This document shows positions 10,601 through 57,165 of a stretch of DNA of 64,000 nucleotides, piece by piece; position 1 is the first letter of the stretch; the number at the start of each line of letters is the position of its first letter. The notes beneath the pieces were generated by a model. The model ran no database searches. It had not been told where the DNA came from and saw only the letters and a list, made by a program, of their open reading frames with translations. The DNA is from Buddleja alternifolia. Its lineage: Eukaryota > Streptophyta > Magnoliopsida > Lamiales > Scrophulariaceae. The position numbers were made by a program, and so were the translations under genes. Location of the stretch: positions 2,542,001 through 2,606,000 of the forward strand of contig CM033404.1 of assembly GCA_019426215.1 (NCBI GenBank). Reading direction: 5' to 3'.

Positions 10601-11372
10601 GTAATTTATATGGGTCGACAATTGTCTACGTTCATCAGAGAATATAAGAGAATTTCGCTATTAATGAAAGAGTTACAAAATATAAAAAATGTCGAAAGTG
10701 CTAGCTAAACATCGTCCCTCATATTTTTTCCTATATATATGGCGGCCTTTTAATATGTGGAACATGACTTTCAATTTTGGATTTTTTGTTTAATTTGCGG
10801 TCAGGATTTTAAAATATATATAAAATTTGAGAGTCTAAATTTTATTCATTTTGTATCTTTGTTTACATGTTACATTTAATCTAGAGCATACACATATTAT
10901 GGATTTTGTTATTCTAAGTTTTAACAATTATATTAGTGGTGGCAGGTATGCCTCTTATTGATTAAAAGAAAAGAAAAGGAAAGAAAGGAATATAACACCT
11001 CAATTTACTAGCCATCAAATTTTCTACTTTATACATGCCTCACGATTATATATAAAGCTAAAAATTTTGGAATGACATTTACTTTCAACGAACTTTTAAT
11101 AGCAATTCAACAAGAAGTTTGAACTTGGAAAATCCATCAATATTGAACGATAAAAATCACTTTAGTAAATTTGTATTTTCTTTTCTCCTCATTTTCAATC
11201 TTTTTTTCCATTATCATGATTCTATTACATATACTCTTGAGTTCTTGACTTGTCACCCCAATTCCAATCTCTTTCTCATCTCACCCCCCACATTTTACAT
11301 TATAAAGGATAACTTGAAAATGACATAAAAGCCCTTCTCAAGAAACCATATCCACACAATTACCCTTCAACC
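7621..11372. other. Gene-free intergenic region
   Basis: This 3.7 kb of AT-rich sequence lies between the TLDc promoter and the 3' end of the first transporter gene. There is no ORF with family resemblance. Visible items are a diverged block at 8515-8660 that resembles 6720-6850, a small perfect palindrome (CGACCCAAGTGGGTCG, about 7688), an AT tract near 10122-10140 and a short duplicated CGTGTTCTCCACTTCTC at 10492-10528. The last few hundred bases should include the 3' UTR of the transporter. Confidence 0.5.
8515..8660. repeat. Diverged second copy of a block in TLDc intron 1
   Basis: Shared word order (GGCCCAAATTaaCCAGAAGatcc ... GTAGGCAATTaTCaAACC ... CGTAAATTACT) is seen here and, more diverged, at about 6725-6850. 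The two may be members of one dispersed element, but no termini were found. Confidence 0.35.
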
Positions 11373-14271
11373 CTAAGTTGGGCCAATAGAGCTATTCTCC
11401 ACATGGATCAACCCCTTACTCTCAAGTTTCTTTTCCTCTAACGCCATCATAGTCGACCTCCACTTAAAGAACGTCCCAAAATAAGTCTCCATTTCTTCGA
11501 GCGTTTTACCCTGAGTCTCGGGGTATAAAGTGTAAAAGAACACCCACGCAATAGCAGCAACCCCTGCATACAAAAAGAACGCCCCTCCTATAGTTATGGC
11601 GTTCGACAAGGATATAAACGTCATTGAAATAACTGAGCTAGTGACCCGATTCGACGCGATTCCCATAGCACAACCTTGGGCCCTTAACTTCAACGGAAAA
11701 ATCTCCGAACTATAAACCCAAGTAATCGGGCCCATTCCAAGCGCGAAAACGGACACGTAACACAAAATCGAAGCCATACACAAAGCCACGGCCCAAACCA
11801 ATCTTTCATCCGAGTTTCCAATATAAGTAAGCCCAATAGCCAAGCCCGTTAAACAAAAGGCACAGCCCGCGGCACTAGTTAAAAGCAAAGGGCGCCGTCC
11901 GATCTTATCCAACAAAAACGTGGAAACCAAAGTAAAACACAACTTCACAAATCCAACGGCCATCGTCGCGAGTAGCTTATGCGTGTCATTTTGTATACCC
12001 GCTCTTTGAAATATTTCCGGACTATAAAGCACCACAGAGTCTATCCCACTCGCTTGTTGGAAAAAATGTACACCCACGCCGCACAATATAATGTGGCGCA
12101 CGGCGGGGGTGGGGTGTAGGAGGAGTTCTCTCCATACGCCATCGCCGCGATTTTGTTTGGGGACGGAAACGACGTCGTCGTCGCAGTTTTCGGGTATGCC
12201 TGCGGCTTCTTTGATGTCAATGAGTCGGAGTTTGGACTCGTCTAGTGACTCGGAGGTTTTGTCGAGGACTCGTTTGGCTTCGGCGAGTCGACCCTGCATG
12301 ACGAGCCAACGAGGCGACTCGGGCATGAAGATGATGACCGTGGCGAGGAATAAAGAGGGGATTGTGCCGACGCCGAGCATAAATCGCCACCCTAAGTTTG
12401 TTGGGAGCTTGGAGAATGCTAAGTTTGATACATAACCAAGTAGTATGCCTGCATGGAGAAAGAATAAAGAATAAGGGAAAGAATATCATTTATTTTAATA
12501 AATAGGTTACATGATACCTTGTTACAATCAGCTAACAATTACAATAAAACTAGAGAAAAACCCATACGCCTTCGGTGAGAGTAGAACTCAAGACCTCTAA
12601 AATCTTGAGATTAATATCGCCAGTAGAACTAGATTTCATTGGGAGGAGAAAAAAATAGAATTAATTTTTTAAAATATCAAAAACTCTAAAAATTTAAAAT
12701 TAAAATCCTAATTAAAAGAATAAGGAAAATAATAATAAAAAAATTAAATAAATCGGTTACGCGATACAGTATTACAATCAACTAACAATTACTATAAAAA
12801 TTTTTAAAAAAATCTACACGATTTCGGTGGGAGTAGAACCCAAGACCTTTAATATCTTGTAACTTCCCCAATATAGATAGGCTTAGAAAAAAAGTAGACT
12901 TATTTTTTCATGTATAAAAATTTTGAAAAATTAAAATTAAATCATAATTAATATAAATTATCAATATAAAAATTCTAAGTAAATAAATTTTTATACAAAA
13001 GTATATTTAATTAATTTTTAATCCAGAAAACTAAGCGTGTTCAAATTCAAAAATTTATTAACCTTAAAGTTTGGGTTTTTTTTAATGAAAAATTGATGGA
13101 ATGGATTTTTTAGATTGAAATTTCTTATCATGATATTTTTGGATATAAAAGTTTTTTTGATGGGTTTTTAGTAATTTTTTCTAGAATTGATTAACAAGTT
13201 GTCCATGAATAAATAAATAAAGTATGCACATATATATATATATATAATAATACTTTTGTGGTCACGCGACATGCTACTCACTTAACAACTATTAAGCAAA
13301 ACCGTAAACGATCAAATATAAATTAATATATAATACATATCAATAATATATTCATTTTATGATATTAATATATTTTATTTAAGGATTCCCAATAAAATTT
13401 GGGTAAGTAAAACTTTTTAAGCAATTAGCATGATAGTCTCTATACTTAATTTGTATAATTTGATTCAAGTTGTATCTACTTTTGAATTTCAATATACAGA
13501 TACATATCTAAGCCTATATGGAATTGGTTTAAGTGTATATTTAAAATAATATGTAACGTGAAGTTTTTGTACCTAGCTAATTGTTGAGAGTAGTCAACAA
13601 CAATATGCATGTGACGCAATTTTAAAATTGACCGTCTTTATATTTTAGTGTTAAATTGTGAAAATAATTGCAGTTGTGAATGTGACTTGCAACTTGTTAA
13701 AAGAAAAAATATAGCAAGCCACCTCAAACAAAAAATTTGTGCGTAACTCTTGTCTATTCAAGGGGTATGGGTAGACAGGTGTATAAAGTCAAATATTGGA
13801 TCCGATATATGTAAAGAATTTGCAACGTAACTATAACATTTTTAAATATAAGATACATGAATCACAATTTTTATTTTTTTTTGCTTTTAAACATTTATTG
13901 AGACAAAAACTACATTATTAGAAGAGAACTAAAATATTAATGATTAAGTTAAAATTCTATTCTTTTTTTGCATGAGTTGACACGTTTATAAACTCTTCCA
14001 AAATAAATTATGAATTTAATAAAAAAATTCATTTGCCCGAACCCAATTGGCTTAAAAATAAAATAAAAAAATACACTAATACTGGCACCTTGTGCGTTGC
14101 ACGAAAAGAATTTTTTATGCAAAAATTTCTTATAATTTATTATTTTCGAGTTAACCTTAGATTAATAAAAAACTAATTTCTGTTTTATATCTTTGTATCA
14201 TCTGATATATATAATGGTATCATATTGTGACTATTAATATGTAGCTGGTTCAAGTGTATGTTTAAAAGAAT

Positions 14272-31759: not shown

Positions 31760-32574
31760 ACATCATTTGTTCTTCAATTCGAGTAGAAGAATGATACTCC
31801 AAAAAATAAAGAGAGAGAAGAGACATTAATTTTTTAGGCTAAAACTTTTCTGCCTCTTTTATCATTCACGTTACTGATATTTAAAATACAAATTCCTAAT
31901 AACTAGCCACTATGAGATAAGGCTCAATCTAAAACTACCCACAACTAATAATAACTCCTACTATTTTAAAACACTATTAGATAATAACACTAATAAAAAT
32001 CAAACGTGAAATAGCTGGAAAGATAAGAGCCTAAATAATTAATTAAAATCTAAATTGGAAATCGATTGAAGAATTTAAATTGTTCTTCTTCAGCAATTTA
32101 GGCCAGACGCATATCAATATTCCACCCATTTTGTGCATGAAGGGTCTTAAGTCCCAATACAAGAATTTTTGTGAAGAAAAATCAATAATTAGTTGGTTCC
32201 CATAATTCAGTACTAAGTCAACTGTTTTATTGGTTGCATTATTGGTTTTATTGATTTTTCAAAAATGGAGTTATTTTGAGATTTGTTTTAGTTTTATGAT
32301 CTGTCCCCAGTCCACTAGCTCAATCCGGATTTTCTGTTGTACATTTGTGTTACACTTTATGTTACATGCACAAATGCGTAACCGCCCGTGTATATACTTA
32401 TTACGCAATTTGTACAGTTTATAAATTAGGTGACGGTTCGATTTATCCGATTAATTATAAAGAGTTACAAATACTCGTAGCAACTGCAAAAGATTTATAC
32501 TACTCCATTTTTGTTATATTTAATACAGGAACAATAAAACTAGAAGTAACCGCATTGATAAGTCTACCCTTACT
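31760..32574. other. Spacer downstream of the second PLT gene
   Basis: AT-rich, with no convincing ORF. The right end should hold the 3' UTR of PLT copy 2. Confidence 0.5.
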
Positions 32575-35500
32575 CTAGGTTTGGGCATTAGTGGTATTCC
32601 CCATTTGGACCTGCCCGTTATTTTCGCCCATCTTTTCCTTCAATGCCCTCGACGTAGCCCTCCACTTAAAGAAAGTCCCGAACAATGTCTCCATTTCCTC
32701 GAGCGTTTTTCCTTGAGTCTCAGGGAGTAAAGTGTAAAAGAACACCAACGCAACACAAGTAACCCCTCCATACAAAAAGAACGCACCTCCAATACTTATA
32801 GCCTTGTACAAGGATATAAACGACATCGAAAGAACCCCACTTGTGACCCGGTTCACCGCGACTGCCATACTACACCCTTGGGCCCGTAACTTCAACGGGA
32901 AAACCTCCGAACTATAAACCCAAGTAATCGGGCCCAACCCGATCGAAAAAAATGCCACGTAAGACAGAACAGTGGATATACACAAAGCTACGGCCCAAAC
33001 CAATTTATGATCCGAATGTTCAATAACAGTAAGCCCAACACCAAGGCCACATAACGACACAATCATTCCAACCACACTTGATAGAAGCAACGGCCGCCGT
33101 CCGATCCTATCCAACCAAAACGTGGCAACCAAGATGAAAACAGTCTTCGTAAATCCAACGGCCATCGTCGCGAGTAGCTTGTCCGTGTCATTAGTTATAC
33201 CCGCTCTCTCGAAGATCTCCGGACTGTACAAAACGACGGCGTCTATGCCACTCGCCTGTTGGAAGAAATGTATCCCCACGGCGCATATTAGAATGTGGCG
33301 CACCGCCGGCGTGGGGCGGAGGAGAAGCTCCCGCCATACGCCCTCGCCGTGGTGTCGTTTGGTGACGGAAACGACGTCGTCGTTGGAGTTTTCGGGTATG
33401 CCGGCGGCTTCTTTGATGTCGGCGAGGCGGAGTTTGGACTCGTCCAAGGAGTCGGATGTTCGGTCGAGGACACGTTTGGCTTCGCCGAGTCGGCCCTGCA
33501 TGACGAGCCAACGCGGGGACTCGGGCATGGCGAGGACGCCGATGGCGAGGAATATGGCGGGGATGGCGCCGATTCCGAGCATGAATCGCCAGCCGAGGTT
33601 GGTTGGGAGCTTGGAGAAGGCGAAGTTTGATACATACCCCAGTAAAATGCCTGTACAAGAACATGAATCAAGTGATCAATGCATGGTAATATGCTAGCTA
33701 ATAAAACAATAACACTACGGACGGAGCCAGGATTTGTGGTCTCGAGAGGGAATACAAAAACAAAGGGGATAAAATTTGATATTTTTTAATTTTGGAGGAG
33801 CAAAATTGTAAACATAAAAAAATTATAGAGTAAAAAAGTTATTTTAATAAAGTCGAGAGAGCCCACCACCAGCCCCTTGGCTCCGTCTCTGACTACAAGA
33901 ATAATATTAGCACAAAACTTAAGTTAGTAGATCAAAGGTGTAATTGAAGATAAGTGTTAGTATAATAATTATACATAAAATTTCATTACATATAATTACT
34001 AGTGACACATTTGTTATTTTCACGCGTGTACCAATAAATGTTAAAAAGACAACTTTATATATAAATTTTTGTAAAAAATGTTATATATCAATGTTTTTGT
34101 AGCACTCTTTTTTCACATTTTCTTGATTTGGAAATAAATTATAATTAGTTGACTTTGATGACATTAGTCAATCAATACTTTCTAAATTAAGAGAATGTAA
34201 AAAAAAAATATTATGAAGACGGTGGTATATAAGATTACTCAATTTTTATTATTAAATATCAATAGCAACAATTTATATTTAAATTTTCATGACTAAACTT
34301 GTCATGACTTGATTTGAGATACCATTTTATTACGTTTGATAGTTCATGAACCTAAATACGACAAAGTGAATAATTTAGGGGTACAAAGTGTATTTCGCAC
34401 ACGTTTTAAAGATAAGAAGAATTGAGTCTTCATTAATTTTATTTTTAGCAAGAAGTTAGATTATTGATGTATCAGAGGGAATCCCATACTTATTATTACT
34501 CGCTAGAAAACATTTGACCATAATTACATCAAACATTTACGACCATTTAATTATGAGAAGAAATACTCATTTTTAGTATTAGAGGGTATTTTTGACTAAG
34601 TTTATAAGCTCCTCTAAACATCTTATAAGATGTTTTAGAGCTTATAAGCTCTATAAATTTATTTCGTAATTTAAAAAAAAAACAGCTTATAAGACCAAAA
34701 AATAAGATGTTTGGGTCTTATAAGCTGTTTTCAAAAAAGTAATTCAACCCATCTTTTTTTAAAGATCTTATAAGACGTTACATTTTATAACCTCCTAAAA
34801 CATCTTATAAGATGTAGGAGCTTATAAAATATTTTGAATAAACTTAGCCAAACAACTTCGTAATACATTCAATTATTCAACCATGTGCGATTGCACATGT
34901 TGCAAACCTGATGCAATTTCTAAAATTTGGTTGTACCATTTACTCCAACCCATCTTTTTCAGTGTTAAATATTGTCAATAAATTGATCACGAGAGTTTAA
35001 AAAAAATAAAAATTGAACTATCAAAGCAAATAGCTAGCAACAAAAATTGAACACAACTTTTGTCTATTCATGAAGGGTATGGCCGTATGGGTAGGAAAAT
35101 GCAAACCACGTTTTCTTGCTAATTGTGGGCACGACATAATTTATTAATTGGACCCCATGATGTATTTTTATTCAAAAGTTCTGGAATTTGTATTAGCTGT
35201 CCTATAAAAAAATTGTTTGCTTCTGTCATTGTATTTTTCATATAAGAAACAATTATAGTTGTATTATTTATAAGAAATATAAATAATATTATCAACCACA
35301 TGAACCTAGGTGAATCACTATCTAAGATATTTTATTTTATATAATTTAAATTGATTCTTATATATGCATCGAATCTTGTTAACACGAAGTAATTCAAATA
35401 ATTAATATCACATTGGTAGCGATATATTAATGCAATCATGACTCGATTTAAGTAAGAATTATTCAATTAAATACAGCGTAATCTTGTCACGTAAACTTAT

Positions 35501-39960: not shown

Positions 39961-40174
39961 GATACACCTCATCTACCAATTAATTTTAGAAGTTTCACTG
40001 TTTACCCTCTAATCTATCTCTCGCGAGAGTTATCTTAATTAATAATTATATTTATAAAGACAATGTAAAGAATAATCTACAGATCAGCTAAATATTTCTT
40101 ACCAAATAAGTACAATTAAAGTATCTTAAAACCCGTCAATGACAAATGATAAGACTTCTGACTTCAAGAATTGT

Positions 40175-40452
40175 GATTAATGATGCATTGAATTTAAACC
40201 CCTCAAATGGGATATCAACTTTCATTTTAATTTCTGATGTAGGATTTGCTAATAATTATTTGTGTTGTACAATTTAATGCAAGAAGAAAAATGAAAAGAA
40301 AAAACATCTTATTGATTAATGATGCCTTGAATTTAAACCCCTCAAATGGAATATCAACTTTCATTTTAATTTCTTATGTAGGATTTGCTAATAATTATTT
40401 GTGTTGTACAATTTAATGCAAGAAGAAAAATGAAAAGAAAAAACATCTTATT
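40175..40452. repeat. 139-bp tandem duplication
   Basis: The block starting GATTAATGATGCATTGAATT repeats 139 bp later with about three differences (GCATTG/GCCTTG, GGGATA/GGAATA, CTGATG/CTTATG). The high identity means a recent event. Confidence 0.9.
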
Positions 40453-41131: not shown

Positions 41132-41570
41132 GGTAATGTCACTATTAGTCCCTCAACTTTACATTTAAAATTATTTTAGTCCCTCAACTTCTAATTGTGT
41201 CGATTGAGTCCCCTCAACTCAACAATTTGTTTCAATGTGGTCCCTCGCCTCAATTTGCAGTCAATTTTGTCCGAAAAGTTGGTCATGTGACACACACATG
41301 TATGTTTTATTAATTACAAAATATCAGTTTTTCCCTTTAAGTTGGCTACGTGCGTGTCACATGACCAACTTTCCAGACAAAATTGAACGAAAATTGAGAT
41401 GAGGGACCATTGAAATAAATTGTTGAGTTGAGGAACTCAATCGACGCAATTAGAAGTTGAGGGACTATTGAAATAAATTGTTGAGTTAAGGAACTCAATC
41501 GACGCAATTAGAAGTTGAGAGACCAAAGTGATTCTAAAAATAAAGTTAAGGGACTAATAGTGGCGTTACC
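41132..41570. mobile_element. Foldback MITE (Mutator-like), 439 bp
   Basis: The termini GGTAATGTCACTATTAGTCC and (reversed) GGTAACGCCACTATTAGTCC begin arms that pair over about 150 bp, including ACTTTC/ACTTTTCGGAC and GTCATGTGACAC. The right arm has a 65-bp internal duplication (TGAAATAAATTGTTGAGTTR...). T-rich flanks hide the target duplication. No ORF. Confidence 0.7.
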
Positions 41571-42030: not shown

Positions 42031-42035
42031 CTCCC

Positions 42036-42890
42036 TGTTTACACAAAATGAAAATGGGTTTTATGAATTAAAAAACTCAAATGGCCCGACACTGATTAAT
42101 GGGCCCCGAGATAAAAAATTAAGCCCATTATAACAATAACATTGCACAAAGTGATGGAATGGGCCCAATGAGAGTCTAAATTTGGCAAAATAACAAGGCG
42201 GGCTCAAAGGTGTTAATTCCAAGGCAGGTTCAAAGAGTCGGGAATTCCGTAAGAAAAGCAACCCGCCAAGACGAAAGAATTTTGAAAAAAAGAAGTTAGA
42301 AGCAGTTCCCGACGGTTGAGAACGTGGGATCACGAAGCGGAGATAAAAACGAAAGAGGAAAGAAAAAGAAAAAAAAGGAACAGAATCATCAACAACTTAT
42401 TTACTATTTTCTTAGGAATAGTCTATAGCGTAGATTAGCAGTAGTCGTAAGTAGTAATAGTTTATCAAGAATCACTGGATCCGGCCTTTAGGGTTTGTAT
42501 TCAATCAGTTGTAATCTTCCCGAATTGAAGGCCTTCATGGATGAATAAATTATCTTTTTTCAGATTTCAGTATTTGATAAGTGATTTGTATCTTGACTTA
42601 AGTTTTCCGTTCATCACTATCGTATTCAAAGGAAAGATTCTCACGTAGGTATATGATTATCTTTTGTCAGGTTTAAGTATCTGAGAGATAATTTTTATCT
42701 GGACTTGAATCTTATCTTTCATCTTATTATTGCATTCGAAAACAATAATCAACTTCTAATTTAAGACTTGAACCACCGAAATAGCGTGTCGAACGCAGGG
42801 GTTGAAAGATAATCTCAAGATATAGATTATTGCGGGGCTCGGAACGCGCAATTGGATCCACCCTAGTCTAGTTTGTTTTTAAACGAAACA
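42036..42890 (+). repeat. 5' LTR
   Basis: 855 bp, from TGTTTACAC to AAACGAAACA, repeated at 55343-56223. The first half contains much of a short open frame on the reverse strand that is not significant. A sense TATA box was not obvious. Confidence 0.92.
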
Positions 42891-42896
42891 AGTTTT

Positions 42897-42916
42897 TGGC
42901 GACCACAGTGGGAGTC
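42897..42916 (+). promoter_or_regulatory. Primer binding site complementary to tRNA-Arg
   Basis: TGGCGACCACAGTGGGAGTC lies 6 nt after the 5' LTR. TGG pairs with the CCA end, and the rest corresponds to the acceptor and T-stem of a plant tRNA-Arg whose T-arm I recall as GTTCGACTCCCACTGTGGTCG. The tRNA identity is from memory. Confidence 0.75.
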
Positions 42917-42967: not shown

Positions 42968-45313
42968 ATGTCTGAGGATTTACTCAAAGGCGATTTGGGT
43001 GATGATTGTGATACTCAACCAATTGCGAGACAAAATGTTAGAGCAGACAAAATGTACGAACAATTTGTCCGGGTTATGAAACAGATCTTAGCGGGTGCTT
43101 GCGAAGATCAAAGAAGAGAATTCGATGATCAGTACCGAGCATTAGCACAAGAGTCGGCCCAAATACTCACTGCAATTGTGCAAGACATTGCAGTGAACGC
43201 TCGAGATGGACTGGCTCGAGAGGTTACTCGAGTAATCACCGAATTAGGAGAAATCTTTAATCAAACATGTGATGTTTTCTCGAATATGATAAATACCCAG
43301 GTAGCCTTAGCACTCGAACCTTTAATTAGCAGGCATAACACTCTAGTAGAAAAAGTATCTCAATTAATATTAATAGAACCTAGGATTCGAACTAGGACAG
43401 TCAATCCAAATGAAGTTCCCCTCGGATATCCTCGAGATGCTCGAACTCGAGAAGAAAGATTCGAGATTTGCCAGTCTTCGAATCAAGTACCGTTTCCTTC
43501 GAGTCAGGTTCCATTCGAGGAGCAGCACTTCTCGAATCCACAAAATGCTGGGGGGGGCATCCACGTGTAAGTCAAGTGAATGCCTATACGAGTCAATTTA
43601 CTCCTCAGCCAGCAAGGCCAAATGTCTCTGTACCACCGAATGGTCCGGAACAAATGCCCGCTGGGTATCCGCCAAATGTTAACCTTGGAAATCCTGAGCC
43701 AAATATCGGTTTTACCCAAGGGTATTATAGTGGAGTTCAAAATATGTCTCAAAGGCCACCTGGGCTTTCGAATATGCCTTTTGGAATGGGAAATCAAGGT
43801 TTACCTAACTATCAGACCAATCATAATTTTCCTTGTATGGCTAACAATTTCCAAAACCCGTATACTGGAGGGTACTATATGCCTAACAATTATATGGGTG
43901 GAAATTTGGGGCCAGAGGTACAAAACCCTCTACAGAATCAAGTAGAGATAGCCATAGAAAGAATATACGGGCCTGGTTTTCGAAGAAATCACCGGCTGAT
44001 TCCGGGAAAACCTTACCCTAATTGGGTAGATAAAAATTTTCCTTTCCCGAGAACCTACAAAATTCCTAACTTTACCCTGTTTTCTGGGGATGACCATGTG
44101 TCAGCCTTAGAACACCTATCTCGATTCACATGCCAATGTCGAGAGGCTGCTGACCAGGAATACCTTAAACTAAGATTGTTTCCCAATTCTTTAACCGGAT
44201 CTGCCTTCAACTGGTATACGAATTTATCTCCTAATTCGATACATACTTGGGATGAAATGCAATTCCAGTTTCAGAATCATTTTGCCCGAACCGAACCGAG
44301 CATGACTATGAGTGACTTAGCCAAAATTAGGCAGAGTACTGGAGAGTCAATAGAGGAATTCTTAGCCCAATTTAAGAAAGCTAGAATCAAGTGTCATATG
44401 AACCTCCCCGAGTCCGAATTTGTACGGTTGGCCCAACAAAACATGGCCTTCGAATATAGGGTAAAATTTGACGGAATGATGTTTTCGGATTTTCGAAGCC
44501 TAGCAGAAAGTGCAATAAGATACGAAAATATGTTGAAAGATGAAAGCCAGAGAAAACATCAGTGATTCAATACCTTTGAAGTGGGTATTCCATGGGCATT
44601 CGAAGATGCCTATGAAATAGACCTGGCAGAATTTATCAAAGGACCCCCCATTTCAGTGTGGGGCCCTCGAAAGAAAGGACTGTGTAGCTACAGGTTCTTT
44701 ACAAACGAAAAAGGGAAAAGAGTATAATTTCGATGTAACAAAAACAGAGAAAATATTCAATTGGCTTCTTGCGAATAAAAAAATTAAATTAAAAGGGAAA
44801 CATCGAAGACTTTCGAAGGCAGAGACTAAAGGAAAGCCATACTGTAAATGGCATAATGCTTTTTCACACGAAACGAATGAGTGTATTATGTTTAGGAATT
44901 TGATACAAGAAAAATTAGACTCGAAAGATATTATTTTTCCAGATATTCAAAAAACAAATATTGATGAAGACCCATTTCCTGTTCTAAATTTCAAGATTAA
45001 TACTGTGGATGTTAACGAGTTCGAACATTCTAATTTGCAGGTACGAAAAGAGGCCAAGTTGGCAAACCGATTGTTCAATAAGCTGATAGATGAGGGAGTC
45101 CCGACATTCCCCAGGGTGAAAGATGAAGGTTTAGAAGGCATGTGTAGATGGCACATTAATACCATGCACACCACCGATGAATGCCAGATTTTCAGGTGCT
45201 TTGTCGCGAAACAATATGAGAAAGGCGTGATATGCCTGTCAGGAATTGATAAGAGAATTTTAAATTTTGATCAGGACGGAAAACCAAAAGAGCAAGGGCA
45301 GCAGTCAAGGTAA
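42968..45313 (+). pseudogene. gag region, broken by a G-run frameshift and stops
   Basis: ATG 42968 opens a 200-codon frame (MSEDLLKGDLGDD...) that runs to TAA 43568-43570. The gag core lies in another frame (to TGA 44563-44565) that overlaps it. The switch falls at eight consecutive G (43550-43557). The core shows the retrotransposon gag pattern (ALEHLSRFTCQCREAADQ, LTGSAFNWYTNLSPNSIHTW, TGESIEEFLAQFKKARIKCH). Downstream, a third frame to TAA 45311-45313 holds Cys/His motifs YCKWHNAFSHETNEC and CRWHINTMHTTDEC, which resemble the zinc-binding part of Tat gag. The product would form the virus-like particle and bind RNA. It cannot be made in one piece from this copy without frameshifting. Confidence 0.8.
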
Positions 45314-47438: not shown

Positions 47439-48765
47439 TAATTTAAAGACTGCTTCGCTTGGGCACATCATGAAATACCCGGAATTGACACAAATATAGC
47501 TCGACACGAGTTACCCATTAAACTAGGCTTTAAACCTGTGATACAAGCACTGAGGCGCCTATCCCAAATCTAATGGGAGCCATCAAAGAAGAAATAGAGA
47601 AATTGGTAGAAGCCAAGTTCATTAGACCAACTCGACATGTTGAATGGTTGGCAAATATAGTACCGGTAATTAAGAAGAATGGTAAAGTACGAATATGCAT
47701 CGACTTTAGAGATTTGAATAAGGCTACACCGAAAGACGAATACCCAATGCCAATGGCAGATGTACTGATTGATGCAGCTGCTGGGCATAAGGTGATGTCC
47801 TTTATGGATGGGTATTCTGGATACTATCAGTTGAAAATAGCCAAAGCAGATCGGCATAAAATAGCTTTTAGATGTCCAGGTTCCATAGGAACCTTTGAAT
47901 GGAGAGTCATGCCTTTCGGTTTGAAAAACGCCGGGGCAACATATCAGAGGACCATGAATTATATTTTTCACGATCTAATCGAAAAGTCCGTGGAAATATA
48001 CATCGATGATGTAGTAGTTAAAGTTCAAAATCATGAATAGCACATGCAATCTTTGATAAAGGCTTTCCAACGAATGAGGCTTTTTAATCTAAAAATGAAT
48101 CCTTTGAAATGTGCTTTCGGCGTGGAAGCTGGAAATTTTTTAGGATTCTTGATCCATAATTGAGGCATTGAGGTGGACCGAAATAAAGCCAAAGCTATTA
48201 TAGAAGCTAAGCCTCCGGGTAATAAAAAAGAACTACAACGTTTCTTAGGGCAAGTGAATTTCCTACAAAGATTCATGGCCAACCTAGCCGGGAAAACGAA
48301 AGCTTTCTCCCCTTTATTATGAATAAAAGACGAGGATGAATTTGTATGGGGTGATGAACAAAAAGGAGCATTTGACGCTATAAAGAAATATTTAATTCAG
48401 CCTCCGGTGTTAATTCCTCCTCGAAAAGGAAAAAAGCTAAGATTATATATATCGGCAGCAGAAGTATCAATAGGCTGCCTATTAGCGCAGGAAAATGACA
48501 GGGGCTACGAACAAGCTGTGTTCTACTTGAGTAGACTTCTAAATGATGCAGAAAAAAAGTATACCTAGATGATGCAGAAAAAATGGTGCCTCAGCCTATA
48601 TTTTGCCTCTATAAAATTAAGGCATTATTTCGCTACATATTCTATCGAAGTAGTATCCCCGACTGACGTCATCAAATTTATGATCAATCCACCTTTGGTT
48701 AAAGGTCGATTGAGTAAATAGAGTCTTAGCTTACTCCAATTTGACTTGATCTATGTGCCACAAAA
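47439..48765 (+). pseudogene. Reverse transcriptase - RNase H
   Basis: The frame at 47442-47570 (DCFAWAHHEIPGI...) is joined to the main pol frame by a one-base shift near 47560. The main frame then runs unbroken by indels from 47573 to 50683. RT marks: VRICIDFRDLNKATPKDEYP, FMDGYSGYYQLKIA, MPFGLKNAGATYQ, the catalytic YIDD (about 47998) and LKCAFGV. The RNase H connection (FVWGDEQKGAFDAIKKYL; LYISAAEVSIGCLLAQ) follows. Stops: TAG 48038, TGA 48161, TGA 48320, TAG 48566 and TAG 48719. The product copies the element RNA into cDNA. Confidence 0.88.
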
Positions 48766-49240
48766 AGCAGTAAAAGGTCAGGCCTTGGCTGATTTTTTAG
48801 CCGATCACCCATCTATCGATAAGGGAACTATGGGACATTTTGAAATTGATGTCATTAGCACCGCTCCTTGGATCCTCTATTTCGATGGATCAAGCACTCG
48901 AGATAGCGCAGGGATCGGGATATATATCATATCCCCATCTAAATTAATCACCAAAATGTATGCGAAAATCGAAAGTGACTGCACTAACAATAGGGCAGAA
49001 TACGAAGCCCTTATGTTGGGTTTAGAGGTGCTACGAGATATGAAAGCAAAGAATATAAAGATCAAAAAGGATTCCTAGTTGATAGTAAATCAAGTGAAGG
49101 AAATATTTAAATATGTGAGTGTTGTAGCAATATCCTCTTTTGCTCGAATAAACGAGTTGTTCAAACATTTCGAAACAATCGAAGTTTCATACATACCACG
49201 AGAAAATAATCAAATATCTAATGATTTAGCTCAACTAGCA
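48766..49240 (+). pseudogene. Second (archaeal-type) RNase H domain
   Basis: WILYFDGSSTRDSAGIGIY, NNRAEYEALMLGLEVLRDM and the KKDS motif give the D, E and D residues of a type I RNase H with the NNRAEY pattern typical of the extra aRNH of Tat elements. In-frame TAG at 49076-49078 stands where Gln normally follows the third Asp (DSQ). Confidence 0.82.
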
Positions 49241-50683
49241 TCTGGATATAAAATTGATTCAGACATGTTCGAGTCAATTATCCAACTCAAACCAAGAATA
49301 ATACTACCTTTCGAACAAAGGGTAACTCGAATTCACAAAATCGATATTCGTAAAGAAGAACGAGATTGGCGCTTAGAAATCATCAAATACCTCCAAAGCC
49401 CAGCTAGAGGAGGCTTCTCGAATAAGTTAAAACTGATGGCCCATCACTATTTTTACGATGGACAAGAATTATATAGAAAGGATCCTCAAGGGGTTTTGTT
49501 GAAATGCCTCGATCTAGAGGATGCACTAATTATAATGGCAGAAACCCATAAAGGGGCGTGCGGAGCCCATCAGTCAGGACAGAAAATGAGATGGATGATA
49601 CAAAGATATGGATTCTACTGGCCAACTATCTTACGAGATTGTATAAGCTATGCTAAGGGATGTAAGCAGTGTCAGAAACATAGAAAAATATTGAGGCAGC
49701 CGACTGTCAGTTTAAACTCCATAGTAAAACCCTGGCCATTTCGAGGTTAGGCCATGGACATAATCGGAGAAATTAAGCCAGCTTTATCTAAGAAACATAG
49801 GTATATCTTGGTGGCCACTGATTATTTTACCAAATGGATAGAGGCTAAAGCTTTCAAAAATATAAGTTCAAAACAAGTGGTCGAATTCATTAAGGAGTAT
49901 ATCATCACAAGATTTGGTATCCCAGAAACCATAACCTTCGATCAGGCTAGAGTATTTAATAGCACAGAAGTGCTCGAATTTCTAGAACAATTCGGAATAA
50001 AGTTGATAAATTCGACACCTTACTACGCCTAGGCAAATGGCCAAGCTAAATCATCGAACAAGCTAATTAAAAGTTGTATCTCAAAAATGATAAGCCAAAG
50101 CCCAAGAAATTGGCACGAATTGTTAATCGATGCGATTTGGGCACTAAGGATAATCAAGATAGACATTCTAGGAATATCCCTTTTCCAATTAGTATATGGC
50201 CACGAGGCTGTAATTCCTTTGGAAATCAATATTAAGTTTAGACGAATACTTGAACAAGCACAACTTTCAACCGAAGAATACGTGGAAAATATGAATATCG
50301 AAAAACTAGACTATGAAATATTGCAAGTTCAAGCGTTGCAACAAATAGAACTTCAAAAGAATAGAATCGAAAAAAGTTATAATAAAAAAGTAAAGGCGAG
50401 ATCCTACGAAGTAGGGGATTTAGTTCGAAAAATTATTCTACCTGAAGGTTCAAAAGATAATTTTTATGGGAAATGGTCATCTAAATGGGAAGGACCATTT
50501 TTAATTTTGAATAAATTATCTGGGAATGCTTTCGAACTCCAATGGATAAATGGGGACAAGTATGGTAAAGCATTAAATGCAAGATATCTAAAGAAATATA
50601 CACCAAGTATATGGAAAGAAAATGAAACCATTATATTCGAAAGGTTACCCGCAACGGGCCAAAACTTCTTACAATCAAAGTAG
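49241..50683 (+). pseudogene. Integrase
   Basis: The zinc-binding HHCC motif is visible (HKGACGAH then CISYAKGCKQC), followed by the core: MDIIG, with the first Asp at 49757, and ITFDQARVFNS with the second Asp. The third catalytic position reads NGQAKSSNK, Lys (AAA 50048-50050) where Glu is expected, so the enzyme would be dead. Stops TAG 49748 and TAG 50030 precede it; the normal end is TAG 50681-50683. The C-terminal part (YEVGDLVRKI ... KWEGPFLI ... LNARYLKKYTP) is the usual SH3-like region. It inserts the cDNA into the genome. Confidence 0.88.
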
Positions 50684-50713
50684 AAATATTAAAGCAACAT
50701 TGTTCGAAAATGT

Positions 50714-53700
50714 CTAGGGTTGGAGGAAAAACAAAGAACTAGATAAGATATCTAAAGCCGAATCAAAGGCATCTCTTTCGAGTACAGCAGGTTTGGCTAT
50801 TTCTTCGAGCTCGAACAATAACGCAGCAATCTGGTCGTTCAAAGCTGAGATGTTCTCTTCGACTTGGTCAGCTGACTGGATCAGGCGATCCAGTTCGAGT
50901 TGAAGATCGGCGATCTGGGCATCAAGAGCGGCAATTCGAGCCAAATAACTATCACGAGAACCCTCTAGGACGGTGATCTGGCCATGGAGTTGATTCATTT
51001 ATTGGAAATGGCTAGAAGACACTGCTTCAGTGAAAGGGTTGATACCCTGATCTGCAAGAGAGCGGAGACGAGCGAGGCTATTCTCGAAAACCTCACGGGC
51101 CGTTTGGAACATGGATAGTCAAGTACTAGCCATCCTCGAAGCTGCTTCATCAAGGAGAAAACGGAGCTCCACTAGCAGATGAGAATCATTAAGCTTATGT
51201 TTTATGTCCATAAGGGCTTCGTTTAGGGAAACTTGAGAGAACACGATCGACGCCGCCTCATCTAAGAAAGAAAATCCCGAAGTTAAAATGTCAAACTATA
51301 AAGGCTAATGAAATATTGTACAGTCGACGAGATAGATATATACCTTCAGCCGGGGCAGCAAGAGCCATGGTAGAGCTCGAAGGTCCAGGGTCCGTGACCA
51401 AGCTAGATGAGATAGCCAAAGGAGAAACGTCTTCAACTTCTTCTATTTGAACTGAAGAGGAAATATGAAAGAATCCAGCGCAGGTCGAACTTGGGATCCA
51501 AGAACAAGGTTCTTGCCGATGTTGTGAAGAATAGAAAAATCCACAACGATGGTGGATACTCCCGCTGTAGTGCCAATAGAGAATCGCACCGAGGATGGTA
51601 AGCCAGATATGCCTAAATTTTCAAGAGAAGAAGGTCCTGAAAAGAGTTGTTCATAAATATAAATATATGGGGTGTCGAAATCTTCCTAAAAATATAAAAC
51701 GTACATATGACACAAGACTTTACCTAACAAAGAAAGTCTCGAGAGGTCGGGAGCAGTGCTCGTAATAATCTCTGGACGGGTATCTACTTTCTCGAAAGCA
51801 GTACTCGGTAAACTCCCTTGAGTAAAAGGGAGAGTAAGAATATCAAAAGAAAGTATTGCAACAAAGACGCACCAGTGACTATATGGCACAAAGAAACCTC
51901 GAAATGATTAACCAATTAAGAAAACTAAATGATACCTTCGAAGGTGCCCAGAGTAAGGTCTTTTTCGATTGGAGCCTGGTGAATCCCAAGCTCAGGCAAA
52001 GCTTCCTCAGTAATGGGCGAAGCCGGTTAGGTCTCAAAATTCGACGAACCCTCTTCAAGGATGGTCGCAGTATTATCCTCGACATCTGTTTCGATAGCTG
52101 ATGTCTCAGTTTCGAAAATAGCGGCTCCACCCGAAAAACCTGCAAAAAAAAACACAAATATAAACAATTTTCAGAGCAAAGAAATAATCTTCGAATAAAG
52201 GGTTAAGAATAGTCGAGTAATTACTTGGTGCTCCGAGAGACCCTTGTGTGCAAAGGCGTTTCCTGGACCATGGTTGAAGAGCATATTGTGTTGCGTCATC
52301 CTCTTCATCTTCTCCTTCGCCAAATACTCAAAGGGGTTCTTCTCGAGGAACAGAAGTTGGAGGCTCCCCAATGGTGATTGCACTCCATTTACGAGTGGCA
52401 CGTGCAGGAATATCAGGCAACTTAGTTGCAGTGGACGAGTCTCGAAGAGCTCGAGACAGAGCAACATCTTCTTGAACTTGAGGATCATCTCGCTCGAATC
52501 TCCACCCCGAGGCCAGATCATAAAGGATGATGTAATCATTATCCTGTAGAAGGAAAAAGATAAATTTAAAAATACGAAAATATATTGACTAAAAATTACA
52601 TGAATATTCTATGTTACCTCGTTCGATAAGAGGCCCGACAATTGAGCCATATTCAATGTGCCAACATAAAGTCGTGTAAGATCAATAATCTACTTGCGAA
52701 TAATCTGTCTCGAATAACTACGTATCAAGACAGAATTCCAAAAGTTCATGAAGCATTGTTCCAGTCGGAGGATTTTGCAAAAAATAGGAATGAAACACGG
52801 AAGAACTTGACAAGAAGTTCGATTTCGAATAAGAGCTTCAGTCTTGGCTCTCTGTTGGTTTGCAATATAAAATTGCCTGGTTGACTAAGGGCGATTCAGT
52901 GTGCCCAGGAAGGGTGGAGAAAAGCATTGGGTTATGCCAAATTGGCGCGAGCAAAGCTGCAAAACAGGAAAAATAAGTGTATGTTGCTAAACTTGTATAA
53001 TTCAAAATAGGACGTGTTAAAAATGCCACGTATTCGAGAAAAAGTTATTGAAAATAGGATAGACTCTAAGTATGACAGGTTCAAAAATAAGAGGACTCGA
53101 AAAACTATGATTTCAAAATTTAGAGTACTCGAAATGCCATCCTTCTCGAAACTTGATGTACTCGAAAGAAAGACATCGAATATGGTCATGCTCGAAAATG
53201 TCATGTTCGAAAACCAGAAAATCCGAAAATACATCATGCTCAAAACCACCATGTTCAAAATAAGGAAACTCGAATCTCATCTTGTTCGAAATAAAAATTA
53301 TATACTTTACAAAAATACCCATGTGCTCGAAGTAAAGCGTGCTCAGGAACATATATGTTCGAAAGTGAGATATATTCAGAATGAAAACATTAATATACGA
53401 CTATTACCTGTGGGTTGTAAACCTCGACCCCCGGGACATGGTAGGCATAAAGTAAGTCCCGAGCAGACAGAATAGCCCTCCAATATGAATGATCATCGGT
53501 AGAGGAGTCGAGTGAATCAATTACTCGCATCCAGCTAGGCAAAGCGATGTGAGACCAATGAGTGTGCGCTTGGTCATGCCGGGTTTCAAAGAAGGGGCAC
53601 CAAGTAGAAACGTAACGCGGATTATAAACGGCAGCCAGAACCACTAGGTAGGAGATCTTCTCAAGGGGGATCAACAAATTCACACAAGCTTCTCCATAAC

Positions 53701-54831
53701 ATACCCCTTTCAAGACAGGCTCAAATCGAAGATTCATTTTCTTACGTTTCTGAGATTCATTTTGAATTGAACTCTCGAGGGCCCCAACATATCGAGTGTT
53801 TAACACTTCAGAATAATATAGGAATATCCAACAAATCAGCAACCAAAGGGGTCCAGCTAACTTGTTGGCATTCTAAGGATCCTGATGAAGATTAAACATC
53901 ATCCGGTAAAAGTGGGCCAGTACTAACAAGACCAATTCAATAGGCCCCATGGTAACAACAGCATTAACGGCCAAATTAATGAAATCATTGTTCACCACAC
54001 AACCGGCATCCATGAGCAAACGGCAAAAAATGAAATTCAAGAATAATACCTCCTTGAAAGGAGTAGGAGGATCATTGCAACTGGTAAAATGCTTGACTAA
54101 GGCAGTGTAAGCAATATTCACACCATTGTTTTTGCCATGATGCCTCAACCAAGTTTCTATGGACAACAACAGAACTCGAGCATTAGGAAGCGGCTCACTA
54201 GTAGGAAGGGTTGCACCAGTCGGAGAAAGGCCAGTAATTAGGGAAACATCTTCTAATGTGATCGTTTGAAAGGCCCGAGGTAATACAAAATAATTGTATG
54301 AAGGATGCCAGGAGTAGGCCAGATCATCTGTCGCAACCTGCTCGAAAGAGAGAACCTGATAACAGGCTAATCGAATAAGCCCTAAAAGTTGATTACCCTC
54401 CCACTTACTATGTAGATGATGCAATCTTTCGAACCAAGGATATGCGTCGATGACTCCAATCCAGTCATTGATTGGTTTGGTTTGGTTCGGTTCGTCCAAC
54501 CAAATTTAGTCTCCACTCTACACTGAAAGAGTGGAGCATCATTCTCCAGAGCGGGCCAAGTACCCAATAAGTTGGGGTTACCAGCATCAGAAGGATCGAA
54601 GGCTTCGGATCGAAATCGGGGCCCAAGGCCGATATGGTTGATGGATTGACCACGACGATCGAGAACCCATGGTGGAATAACATGGGTAGACCCGAGAGGA
54701 GATATCTTCGTATCACTATAATGGGCTTCAAAATCCTTGATAGTTTGATATAAATCTTAGGCATCTTCACAATCCAAGATATCCGACCGAGCCACTAAAC
54801 GAGAAAGGTCATGGGAGTTGGACATGGCCAT
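50714..54831 (-). pseudogene. Antisense seven-exon plant mobile domain (PMD) gene inside the retrotransposon
   Basis: Exons on the minus strand: 54831-53408, 52956-52618, 52543-52225, 52139-51936, 51816-51724, 51636-51344 and 51261-50714. All six introns (74-451 bp) have GT-AG ends, and exon phases agree at each join. Exon 1 encodes a PMD (MAIN/MAIL1-like) region: VIPPWVLDRRGQSINHIGLG, NDWIGVIDAYPWFERLHHLH, AFQTITLEDVSLITGLSPTG, YRAILSARD-like SYWRAILSARDLLYAYHVPG. Middle exons are acidic and Ser/Pro-rich; the last is coiled-coil (LHGQITVLEGSRDSYLARIA, LQLELDRLIQ). Lesions: TAA 54759, a frameshift near 54490 at an ACCAA-type run, TAG 53875, TAG 52887, TAG 52692, TGA 52330, TAA 52029, one indel in exon 6, TGA 51121 and TAA 51001. 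PMD proteins MAIN and MAIL1 act in transposon silencing and genome stability in Arabidopsis; a role against silencing here is inference. Confidence 0.85.
53010..53400. repeat. Degenerate TCGAA-rich repeat filling intron 1 of the antisense gene
   Basis: About 20 short units with the core TTCGAA or CTCGAAA followed by ATG/CAT words (for example CTCGAAAATGTCATGTTCGA) are spaced roughly 15-25 bp apart. Open frames on both strands across it come from this repetition, not from a protein family. Confidence 0.6.
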
Positions 54832-55030
54832 TATTGTACTCGAATACGAAGAAAAGAGGTTGTAAAATGAGAAGTGAAGAAGACGAAATCTTCGAAGGAT
54901 GCTGCGAGAGAAGGCAAAGTTTTCGAAAAGAATACTGAGAGCTCGAGGATTTGTTTTTCAAAAAGAAAAGGAGAGAAAAAATAAAGTTAACAGTGACGGC
55001 TAAGAGAAGGCAATGAGGTATTTATAGGTT
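54832..55030 (-). promoter_or_regulatory. Promoter and leader of the antisense PMD gene
   Basis: On the minus strand CCTATAAATACC (55028-55017) is a textbook plant TATA box, about 185 nt before the ATG at 54831. This would put transcription start near 54990. It is outside the LTR, so the gene has its own promoter. Confidence 0.65.
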
Positions 55031-55342: not shown

Positions 55343-56223
55343 TGTTTACACTAAAAATGAAAATGGGTTTTATGGATTAAAAAACCCAAATGGCCTGACA
55401 CTGATTAATGGGCTCCGAGATAAACAATTAAGCTCATTATAACAATAACAATGCACAAAGTGATGGAATGGGCCCAATGAGAGTCTAAATTTGGCAGAAT
55501 AACAAGGCGGGCTCAAAGGTGTTAATTCCAAGGCAGGTTCAAAGAGTCGGGAATCCCGTAAAAAAAAACAACTCGCCAAGACAAAAGAATTTTGAAAAAA
55601 AAAAGTTAGAAACAGTTCCCGATGGTTGAGAACGTGGGATCACGAAGCGGAGATAAAAACAAAAGAGGAAAGAGAAAGAAAAAAAAAGGAACAGAATCAT
55701 CAACAACTTATTTACTCTTTTCTTAGGAGTAGGAGTAATTAGGAGTAGTCTATAGCGTAGATTAGCAGTAGTCGTAAGTAGTAATAGTTTATCAAGAATC
55801 GCTGGATCCGACCTTTAGGGTTTGTACTGACATTCGATCAGTTGTAATCTTCCCGAATTGAAGGTTTTCATGGAGGTATAAATTATCTTTTTTCAGATTT
55901 CAGCATTTGATAGGTGATTTGTATTTTGACTTAAGTTTTCCATTCATCACTATCGTATTCAAAGAAAAGATTCTCACGTAGCTATAAGATTATCTTTTGT
56001 CAGATTTAAGTATCTGAGAGATAATTTTTATCTGGACTTGAATCTTATCTTTCATCTTATTATTGCATTCGAAGACAGTAATCAACTTCTAATTTAAGAC
56101 TTGAACCACCGAAATAGCGTGTCGAACGCAGGGGTTGAAAGATAATCTCAAGATATAGATTATCGCGGGCCTCGGAACGCGCAATTGGATCCACCCTAGT
56201 CTAGTTTGTTTTTAAACGAAACA
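55343..56223 (+). repeat. 3' LTR
   Basis: 881 bp. It is longer than the 5' LTR mainly through short insertions (GAGTAATTAGGAGTAG near 55732 and TGACATTCG near 55829). Among the substitutions, many are C or G in the 5' LTR against T or A here. Confidence 0.92.
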
Positions 56224-56228
56224 CTCCC

Positions 56229-56434: not shown

Positions 56435-57165
56435 GGAAAAATTGCAATATTCATACATTATGTTGGCGTGTACATTTTTTTAATATTTTAAGTTGGCCAA
56501 CTGGCAATTTGGATACATTAACTTGAAAAAATCGGCAATTTTGGTACAAATTGGCCGGAAAATTTGGGGATTTTGACTTAAATTGAAAATTTTGATTGAT
56601 TTTGACTTAATTTGAGATTTTTTATTTTAAATATAAACTAAAAAAAATTATTATTTTATAAAAAAAAAAAACCACCCCACCCCACCCCACCCCACCCCTT
56701 GCATCACCGTATGTGTGTGTGTATATATATACTAAAAAGAAAAATACTTATATATATATATATGTGTGTGTGTGTGTATATATATGCGTGTGTATATATA
56801 TGTGTGTGTGTGACTGTGTGTGTTTGTGTGCGTGCGTGAGGGTGGCGTGGGGAAGACGACACTGTTCCCCACCCTCACTTTTCAATTTTTCTTTTTTTTA
56901 TTTAATTTATAAAATAATATATTAAATAAGTAATTTATTTTAGAAATTGAGTTTATTAAAAAAATAACTCCAAATCAGTCAAAATTCCCAATTTCAATCA
57001 AAATCCCCAAGTTTTTCAGCCAAATTCAAATTTTAAATTTTCCGGCCAATTTGTACCAAAATTGTTGATTTTTTCAAGTTAATGTAGCCAAATTGCCAGT
57101 AGGCCAACTTAAATTATTAAAAAAAGGTCCACGCCAACATAGTGTATGAATGTTGCAATTTTTCC
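56435..57165. mobile_element. Mutator-like foldback MITE with 10-bp target duplication
   Basis: The termini GGAAAAATTGCAATATTCAT and (reversed) GGAAAAATTGCAACATTCAT begin arms of about 230 bp. GTCAAAACAA is found on both sides (56425-56434 and 57166-57175). The centre holds CACCC tandem repeats (about 56672-56698) and GT/AT microsatellites (56710-56835). No real ORF. Confidence 0.85.
56672..56835. repeat. (CACCC)n and (GT)n/(AT)n simple repeats
   Basis: About five ACCCC units, then alternating GT and AT tracts, within the loop of the foldback MITE. Confidence 0.85.

What the first reader, a model, noticed from the sequence alone, without database searches (positions are those of the whole stretch)
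50714..54831. A spliced plant mobile domain gene carried antisense by a Tat retrotransposon
Seen: seven exons on the strand opposite gag-pol, six GT-AG introns with matching phases, PMD motifs (NDWIGVIDAYPWFERLHHLH; SYWRAILSARDLL) and a C-terminal coiled coil. Introns cannot persist in a sequence carried through the sense genomic RNA if they are removed, but antisense introns are invisible to that RNA. This explains how a cell-like gene survives in a retroelement. Known: host PMD proteins MAIN and MAIL1 are needed for transposon silencing. Inference: the element carries a PMD protein that competes with or modulates host silencing.
Basis: partly seen in the sequence, partly recalled or inferred. 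Interest (0 to 1): 0.88.

Follow-up and report, generated by a model that had tools for sequence, protein, structure and literature searches.

The report
Spliced antisense gene inside a retrotransposon
A plant retrotransposon family carries, on the strand opposite its own replication genes, a gene with six predicted introns whose splice sites and coding sequence are conserved across the copies examined; its plant-mobile-domain protein, predicted to be nuclear, likely interferes with the host's silencing of mobile DNA, and the copy in this window is itself broken.

Summary
A Tat-type Ty3/gypsy element (LTRs 42036-42890 and 55343-56223, CTCCC on both sides) carries an antisense seven-exon gene between pol and the 3' LTR; exon 1 matches the Pfam plant mobile domain above its cut-off. 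The gene is nevertheless a family gene. In the same genome 150 exon-1 matches were scored (of 1,414 candidates; the window's included), and 83 of these 150 have the last exon co-linear on the same strand. Eight near-identical exon-1 copies at eight loci on six contigs are open and keep introns 1 and 2. Splice sites persist while intron bodies and lengths drift; where an acceptor was lost, an in-frame AG lies just downstream. Between lineages exon 1 has dN/dS about 0.1. A TATA box lies between 3' LTR and start codon in 27 of 29 relatives. PMD genes in Tat/Ogre elements, antisense accessory ORFs and the counter-silencing idea are already in print; a six-intron antisense gene with its own TATA box is not described in the papers I could search. 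Splicing, expression and function are untested.

The parts
42031..42035 (.). target-site duplication CTCCC (left)
   Evidence: same five bases follow the 3' LTR
42036..42890 (+). 5' LTR (TG...CA)
   Evidence: K2P 0.049 to the 3' LTR
42897..42914 (+). primer binding site TGGCGACCACAGTGGGAG (tRNA-Arg type; the match to tRNA-Arg is recalled, not tested)
   Evidence: sequence; tRNA pattern search unanswered
43468..44565 (+). gag
   Evidence: PF03732 E 1.5e-13
47573..48040 (+). reverse transcriptase
   Evidence: PF00078 E 3.2e-21
48323..48565 (+). RNase H (RT-linked)
   Evidence: PF17919 E 4e-17
48746..49078 (+). additional RNase H (aRH) between RH and integrase, the Ogre/Retand order
   Evidence: PF00075 E 3.7e-6; order as in PMC6317226
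49079..50683 (+). integrase stretch in three ORFs: zinc-binding domain, rve core (49754-50032), C-terminal part; its stop is 30 nt from the stop of the antisense gene
55019..55026 (-). TATA box (TATAAATA) of the antisense gene, between gene and 3' LTR
   Evidence: found in 27 of 29 relatives
53408..54825 (-). exon 1, plant mobile domain; this copy: stops 54759, 53875 and a frameshift near 54480
52957..53407 (-). intron 1 (GT-AG, phase 0)
   Evidence: GT...AG at aligned ends in 28 of 29 relatives (two of them, L022 and L041, doubtful at the acceptor)
52618..52956 (-). exon 2; stops 52887, 52692
52544..52617 (-). intron 2 (phase 0)
   Evidence: GT...AG in 24 of 29 relatives
52225..52543 (-). exon 3; stop 52330; basic motif SRKRL at about 52250-52270, RSRKRLR in 7 of 8 relatives (possible nuclear signal)
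52140..52224 (-). intron 3 (phase 1)
51936..52139 (-). exon 4; stop 52029
51817..51935 (-). intron 4 (phase 1)
51724..51816 (-). exon 5
51637..51723 (-). intron 5 (phase 1)
51344..51636 (-). exon 6; frameshift near 51475
51262..51343 (-). intron 6 (phase 1)
50714..51261 (-). exon 7, coiled-coil-type C-terminus; stops 51121, 51001; terminal stop 50714-50716
55343..56223 (+). 3' LTR
56224..56228 (.). target-site duplication CTCCC (right)

Best explanation
This is the decayed copy of a conserved accessory gene of a Tat-type LTR retrotransposon family: it lies antisense between pol and the 3' LTR, has seven exons with conserved splice sites and a TATA box of its own, and would be spliced into a predicted nuclear plant-mobile-domain protein that likely weakens the host's PMD-based silencing of the element. 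Shown here: antisense position, conserved splice sites, frame and TATA box, purifying selection on exon 1, near-identical copies that keep introns 1 and 2, and the broken frame of this copy. Inferred: transcription from the TATA box, splicing, nuclear entry through the basic motif in exon 3, dimerisation through the coiled coil, and competition with MAIN/MAIL1-type host proteins. The introns would persist because the replicating genome is the sense RNA, on which antisense splice sites are not read.
For: PMD hit above cut-off in the window and in open family copies (E 3.2e-21 and 5.3e-20). 150 exon-1 matches scored of 1,414 candidates, on each of contigs C1-C19, and 150 exon-7 matches of 874; 83 of the 150 exon-1 places have an exon-7 place on the same strand 2.4-4.6 kb downstream, and all 88 neighbours within 8 kb are on the same strand. 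Integrase on the opposite strand in 8 of 8 copies examined. Intron 1: lengths 126-458 nt in all three classes mod 3 (485 in doubtful L041), yet GT...AG at aligned ends in 28 of 29, two of them doubtful; intron 2 in 24 of 29. Introns 3-6 in 8 copies: donors GT in 7, 7, 8 and 8 of 8; where the aligned acceptors of introns 5 and 6 are missing, in the same four copies, an AG 24 or 9 nt downstream keeps the frame. Exon 1: third-position divergence about 0.34 against 0.12 and 0.10; median dN/dS 0.106 for 29 pairs at dS 0.6-1.2. Eight open copies at eight loci on six contigs differ by 1-24 of 1,413 exon-1 bases and keep introns 1 and 2. TATA box in 27 of 29. P0001, 52% identical, ends YNPQ-VE, so a GT follows the same codon.
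Against: No RNA evidence: splicing and expression are inferred. No functional evidence for anti-silencing; the exon-1 piece is only 26-30% identical to the other PMDs of the genome that it matches, so binding to host partners is uncertain. 22 of 30 aligned exon-1 copies, the window included, are not open. Exceptions at splice sites: intron 2 ends are not found in 5 of 29; L054 has GC at donor 3; L056 has lost both ends of intron 4. Among the eight open copies dN/dS is higher (medians 0.46 and 0.33), so selection is shown between lineages, not within the young subfamily. Purifying selection was measured on exon 1 only. Whether intact elements without the gene exist is unknown (pol survey unanswered).
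Confidence: 0.6

Rival explanations
1. Same spliced antisense gene, but its protein acts on the element itself, for example as a nuclear transcriptional regulator or integration/nuclear-import factor, as proposed for Grande GENE23 and the Retand TRP28 proteins, not on host silencing.
For: Grande gene23 lies in the same place and orientation, has its own promoter and a nuclear product (PMC7264820, passages); Retand antisense ORFs are proposed to be transcriptional regulators (PMC11963269, passages); conserved basic motif in exon 3.
Against: The domain here is PMD, whose studied members MAIN and MAIL1 act in transposon silencing (PMC5418596, PMC7156037); no direct data for either.
Confidence: 0.3
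2. The antisense transcript, not the protein, is what matters: it pairs with the sense RNA (the two genes end tail to tail, 30 nt between the stops) and tunes element copy number through siRNAs.
For: Tail-to-tail arrangement; a regulatory role of antisense RNA has been suggested for such elements (PMC7264820).
Against: dN/dS of about 0.1 between lineages and in-frame acceptor replacement point to selection on the encoded protein.
Confidence: 0.06
3. A host PMD gene was caught in this one element, or the element inserted into a host gene; the exon structure is a single-locus accident.
For: Full-length PMD genes outside this family exist in the genome (L001-L003).
Against: 150 scored matches on each of contigs C1-C19, 83 of 150 with co-linear exon 7; integrase opposite in 8 of 8.
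Confidence: 0.01
4. The introns are not spliced; the gene is a set of separate ORFs (exon 1 as a single-exon PMD ORF, exon 7 as another).
For: No RNA data; exon 1 alone is a long ORF in many copies, which is how a survey of ORFs of at least 250 codons would see it (PMC6317226).
Against: GT/AG kept while intron lengths change mod 3; acceptor shifts keep the frame; the short internal exons 2-6 are open or nearly so in relatives and joined in phase.
Confidence: 0.06

Closest known systems
PMD-carrying Ty3/gypsy (Tat/Ogre) elements: PMD in 57% of Ogre elements (PMC6317226); [quoted passage not shown]
   Same: PMD domain in an extra gene of a Tat-type element; aRH between RH and INT
   Different: The passages seen do not mention introns in the PMD gene or its orientation; extra ORFs were called there as ORFs of at least 250 codons. 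The original report (Steinbauerova 2011) could not be read.
Grande gene23 / RIRE2 / Retand antisense aORF-3R genes (PMC7264820, PMC11963269)
   Same: Antisense gene between pol and 3' LTR, own promoter (Grande), nuclear product (Grande)
   Different: Domain is TRP28 or unknown there, PMD here; the term 'intron' occurs in neither text
HTLV-1 HBZ (PMC10186651, passage)
   Same: Spliced antisense gene of a retroelement with a nuclear product; its bZIP nature is recalled
   Different: Antisense promoter in the 3' LTR there, TATA box in the internal region here; unrelated protein; six predicted introns here
MULE-encoded PMD genes (PMC5418596)
   Same: TE-carried PMD gene; in this genome PMD exons interrupted by intron-like gaps lie beside transposase-like ORFs (L012-L018, by eye; no family scan run)
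   Different: DNA transposon, where introns pose no problem for replication; PMD interrupted at a different place
Arabidopsis MAIN/MAIL1 (PMD-C)
   Same: PMD domain family
   Different: Host genes; the three best PMD matches of this genome, taken to be host-type but not shown to be, carry profile positions 1 or 2 to 347 in one open frame

Membership tests
Tat lineage of Ty3/gypsy (Ogre/Retand type) | Additional RNase H between RH and integrase | tested here: met
   RT 47573-48040, RH 48323-48565, aRH 48746-49078, INT 49079-50032
Tat lineage of Ty3/gypsy (Ogre/Retand type) | LTRs with TG...CA ends and 5-bp target-site duplication | tested here: met
   CTCCC on both sides
Ogre subclade | tRNA-Arg primer binding site | tested here: inconclusive
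   PBS TGGCGACCACAGTGGGAG read; tRNA identity is recalled, the genome check did not complete; Ogre use of tRNA-Arg from PMC9289625
Ogre subclade | Placement in an RT/INT tree with Ogre references | not tested
   no named reference elements in reach
PMD (PF10536) proteins | Match above Pfam gathering score | tested here: met
   window 42.2 bits, L033 76.3, L048 72.3 against 34.9; the matches cover profile positions 6-195 at most of 347, the second half is not recognised
PMD-A clade of Gypsy PMDs | Phylogenetic grouping with Gypsy PMDs | not tested
   reference sequences not available
Antisense aORF-3R genes of Tat elements | Coding gene antisense to gag-pol between pol and 3' LTR, shared by most copies | tested here: inconclusive
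   position and orientation met in the window and 8 of 8 copies; co-linear exons in 83 of 150; the share of all family copies that carry the gene was not measured
Antisense aORF-3R genes of Tat elements | Own promoter with antisense transcription (Grande) | tested here: inconclusive
   TATA box in 27 of 29 relatives; no transcription data
Retand antisense genes | TRP28 (PF04195) domain | tested here: not met
   no PF04195 match in the window's exon-1 pieces or last 94 aa of exon 7, in exon 1 of L033 and L048, or in exons 2 (93 aa), 3, 4, 6 and 7 of L052; exon 5 was not scanned
MAIN/MAIL1-type silencing factors | Binding to PP7L / role in TE silencing | not testable with these tools
   needs experiments

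The most novel reading that the evidence does not exclude
The six introns are not passengers but a working part: because they sit on the antisense strand they survive every replication cycle, and by making the accessory mRNA a spliced, host-like transcript they shield it from the silencing that intronless mobile-element RNAs attract, so that the element keeps making a PMD anti-silencing protein while its sense RNA is under attack.
Probability: 0.2. Interest if true: 0.87.

Novelty: new variant of a known kind. Interest (0 to 1): 0.64.

Why it matters
Introns are expected to be lost when a sequence passes through spliced RNA, and plant LTR elements are described as generally intronless with few exceptions (PMC12786077). 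A multi-intron gene kept under purifying selection inside a retrotransposon would show that strand choice lets such an element carry a full eukaryotic gene with its own TATA box. It also gives a concrete protein with which to test the published idea that transposons make their own PMD proteins against host silencing, and it suggests that surveys based on single long ORFs underestimate such genes.

Tried and rejected
Relatives outside the genome: exon-1 PMD piece in viral contigs, no match; RT in viral contigs, no relative; second exon-1 piece in genome contigs, no relative; window exon 1 against 5.8 billion proteins, no hit at E 1e-3. The open copy L033 then found P0001 (50% in the table, 52% in the alignment); the two-sequence profile added only the distant PMDs P0002 and P0003.

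Structure: the single-sequence model of the 203-aa piece had mean pLDDT 41 and was not used. No solved structure matches the L001 PMD by sequence at E 1.

The first PMD survey by Pfam score lists full-length and MULE-type PMDs ahead of this family; the ten 9.9-kb stretches fetched from it gave no match to the window's pol pieces or to exons 2, 3 and 7 at E 1e-4. They hold transposase-like ORFs beside PMD exons by eye; no family scan was run on them.

One search scanned two minus-strand ORFs (52171-52539, 51879-52157) that turned out not to be in the frames of exons 3 and 4; exons 2, 3, 4, 6 and 7 were therefore scanned from L052.

Not answered: pol survey for copies without the PMD gene, PBS-tRNA pattern, both-LTR dating of three young copies. 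So intact members lacking the gene are not excluded.

Rejected: single-locus capture; unspliced separate ORFs; RNA-only function (see rivals). dN/dS used 14 of 30 aligned exon-1 sequences. Left out: the window; L021-L026, L028 and L034 (eight relatives with a net frameshift or rearrangement); L036 and L037 (net in frame, 4 and 3 stops); L041 (one stop); and L043-L046 (near-identical to copies kept). Of 91 pairs, 68 fell in the dS bins reported and 23 had dS of zero or above 1.2; the three of these printed (L020 with L031, L033, L040) have dN/dS 0.07-0.12.

Literature: all ten searches used. Passages only were read in PMC6317226, PMC5418596, PMC9289625, PMC7264820, PMC11963269, PMC11728184, PMC12786077, PMC7156037, PMC8616336 and PMC10186651; Steinbauerova 2011 is not held; PMC8770142 (HUSH and intronless elements) was seen only as a listing with the start of its abstract. 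Mutation rates for dating, the idea that introns protect plant transcripts from silencing, HBZ as a bZIP protein and the tRNA-Arg match are recalled.
Full report
What is there. The window (G000:C15:2542001-2606000 of an unnamed 853.6-Mb assembly) holds one LTR element: LTRs 42036-42890 and 55343-56223 with TG...CA ends, CTCCC on both sides and K2P 0.049 between the LTRs, that is about 1.9-3.5 My at recalled rates of 1.3e-8 and 7e-9. gag, RT, RH, an additional RNase H and integrase lie in that order on the + strand. The additional RNase H between RH and integrase is the Ogre/Retand order of the Tat lineage (PMC6317226, passages).

The antisense gene. Between pol (last stop codon ends at 50683) and the 3' LTR the minus strand carries seven exons, 54825 to 50714, with six GT-AG introns of 451, 74, 85, 119, 87 and 82 nt, T-rich as plant introns are (44% T against 31% in exons). 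Exon 1 matches PF10536 above its cut-off. Exon 7 is coiled-coil-like: many sub-threshold coiled-coil families, best E 0.0038 for the window's last 94 aa and 0.00026 for the open exon 7 of L052; exons 2 (93 aa), 3, 4 and 6 of L052 match no Pfam family at E 0.1.

This copy is broken. Eight in-frame stops and two frameshifts interrupt it. In 14 related exon-1 copies, 14 of 20 stop codons are C-to-T or G-to-A type relative to the majority codon, the pattern expected of methylated, silenced copies.

The family. The 203-aa exon-1 piece found 150 scored matches of 1,414 first-look candidates, 69-87% identical apart from the window itself, on each of contigs C1-C19. The 94-aa exon-7 piece found 150 of 874 candidates. 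The two lists, each cut at 150, agree in place: 88 exon-1 places have an exon-7 place within 8 kb, all on the same strand, and 83 of the 150 have it 2.4-4.6 kb downstream. For the other 62 exon-1 places no exon-7 place is in the cut list, which does not show that exon 7 is absent. In the eight copies for which I fetched exons 2-7 (L049-L056) the integrase lies on the opposite strand in all eight.

Splice sites against intron bodies. In 29 relatives aligned to the window, intron 1 has GT and AG at the aligned ends in 28 (L021 is rearranged; the acceptors of L022 and L041 are doubtful because what follows is unrelated sequence), although its length runs from 126 to 458 nt (485 in L041) in all three classes mod 3; intron 2 has both in 24. 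In the eight longer copies donors of introns 2 to 6 are GT in 8, 7, 7, 8 and 8 of 8 (L054 has GC at donor 3; L056 lost both ends of intron 4); the aligned acceptors are AG in 8, 8, 7, 4 and 4 of 8. The four copies without the aligned acceptors of introns 5 and 6 are the same, L050-L053; in each of them an AG 24 nt (intron 5) or 9 nt (intron 6) downstream keeps the frame. In five pairs of distant copies introns 2-6 are 53-72% identical, exons 3-7 69-79% and the end of pol 84-93%. This is what selection on a spliced coding sequence leaves behind.

State of the other exons. In the eight longer copies, exons 2, 3, 4 and 7 as aligned are open in several and carry a stop or a net frameshift in others; L052 is open in all four stretches read. 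Exon 6 is open in L049 where the window is frameshifted.

Selection. Exon 1 was compared codon by codon in 14 in-frame copies (of 30), stops skipped. Third positions differ about three times as often as first and second ones. Median dN/dS is 0.106 (range 0.091-0.168) for 29 pairs at dS 0.6-1.2, 0.181 for 14 pairs at 0.4-0.6, 0.204 for 13 pairs at 0.2-0.4, and 0.33 and 0.48 in the two lowest bins (6 pairs each), where recent decay weighs most; 23 of 91 pairs lay outside the bins. The third-position excess runs along the whole exon. Exons 2-7 were not tested for dN/dS.

Recent copies keep introns. Exon 1 is open in 8 of 30 copies (L033, L042-L048). These lie on contigs C1 (two), C2, C3, C4, C5 (two) and C17, differ pairwise by 1-24 of 1,413 bases, and all have introns 1 and 2. 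I could not fetch both LTRs of these copies (tool busy), so their youth rests on this near-identity. I name them to describe the family only.

Promoter-like element. A TATA box (TATAAATA at 55019-55026) sits between the 3' LTR and the start codon, 159-197 nt upstream of the column of window position 54831, in the window and 27 of 29 relatives (not found in L021 and L043; L031 has TATAAAGA). It is in the internal region, not in the LTR. The start codon shared by the family is 54825. A basic stretch RSRKRLR in exon 3 is kept in 7 of 8 copies, a possible nuclear signal.

Another source. The open exon 1 of L033 found P0001 (443 aa, 1,618-base contig): 52% identical in the alignment, and its reading frame ends YNPQ-VE. 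Valine codons begin with GT, so a GT follows the same codon that ends exon 1 here; the donor of intron 1 is thus probably shared with a distant relative. The DNA of that contig and its species were not seen.

Mechanism. Shown: an antisense, multi-exon gene with conserved splice sites, a selected exon 1 and a conserved TATA box. Inferred: it is transcribed from that box and spliced; the introns persist because the RNA that is copied is the sense strand, where these splice sites are reversed; the product enters the nucleus. For function I favour interference with host PMD silencing, since MAIN and MAIL1 act in transposon silencing and bind PP7L (PMC5418596, PMC7156037). The element protein is far from the other PMDs of the genome that it matches (26-30% over the matched part, six of 18 loci), so it may act as a decoy or dominant-negative partner, or not touch that pathway at all. 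The chief rival is a regulator of the element itself, as proposed for Grande GENE23 and Retand TRP28 proteins.

What is known. [quoted passage not shown] PMC8616336 for TE PMDs) are in print. A spliced antisense gene in a retrovirus is known (HBZ, PMC10186651). None of the passages I read after searches describes introns in a PMD or other antisense gene of a plant LTR element; the review PMC7264820 has no occurrence of 'intron' and asks that spliced antisense transcripts be looked for. The first description of extra ORFs in Tat elements (2011) could not be read, so priority is not certain. I rate it a new variant of a known kind.

Noticed in passing
L049-L056, window 49754-52543: The gene looks mosaic between subfamilies: L054-L056 differ from the window and L049-L053 by 28-31% in exon 7, yet L054 and L055 differ from L050, L051 and L053 by only 14-15% in exon 3 (L056 by 21-23%), and all three differ from the window by 7-9% in the end of pol. 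This suggests recombination or template switching between subfamilies.
   Followed up: partly
L009-L018: The genome holds many high-scoring PMD genes; in several fetched stretches they lie next to transposase-like (MULE-type, by eye) ORFs, with the PMD interrupted at a place different from the retrotransposon gene.
   Followed up: partly
14 exon-1 copies: 14 of 20 premature stop codons are C-to-T or G-to-A type relative to the majority codon (TGG to TAG/TGA 8, CGA to TGA 3, CAA/CAG to TAA/TAG 3), as expected from cytosine methylation decay.
   Followed up: no
window 40174-40451: Tandem duplication of a 139-nt unit, 98% identical, left of the element.
   Followed up: no
window 41132-41570 and 56435-57165: Inverted repeats (60-131 nt arms, 85-93% complementary) on both sides of the element, like small foldback elements.
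   Followed up: no
window 11361-12451 and 32565-33653: Two copies of a 1.1-kb repeat, 80% identical.
   Followed up: no
G000:C4:32904670-32921921: Two exon-1 and two exon-7 places on the same strand within about 17 kb, including the closest relative of the window's copy (L020/L049): adjacent copies or a rearranged element.
   Followed up: no
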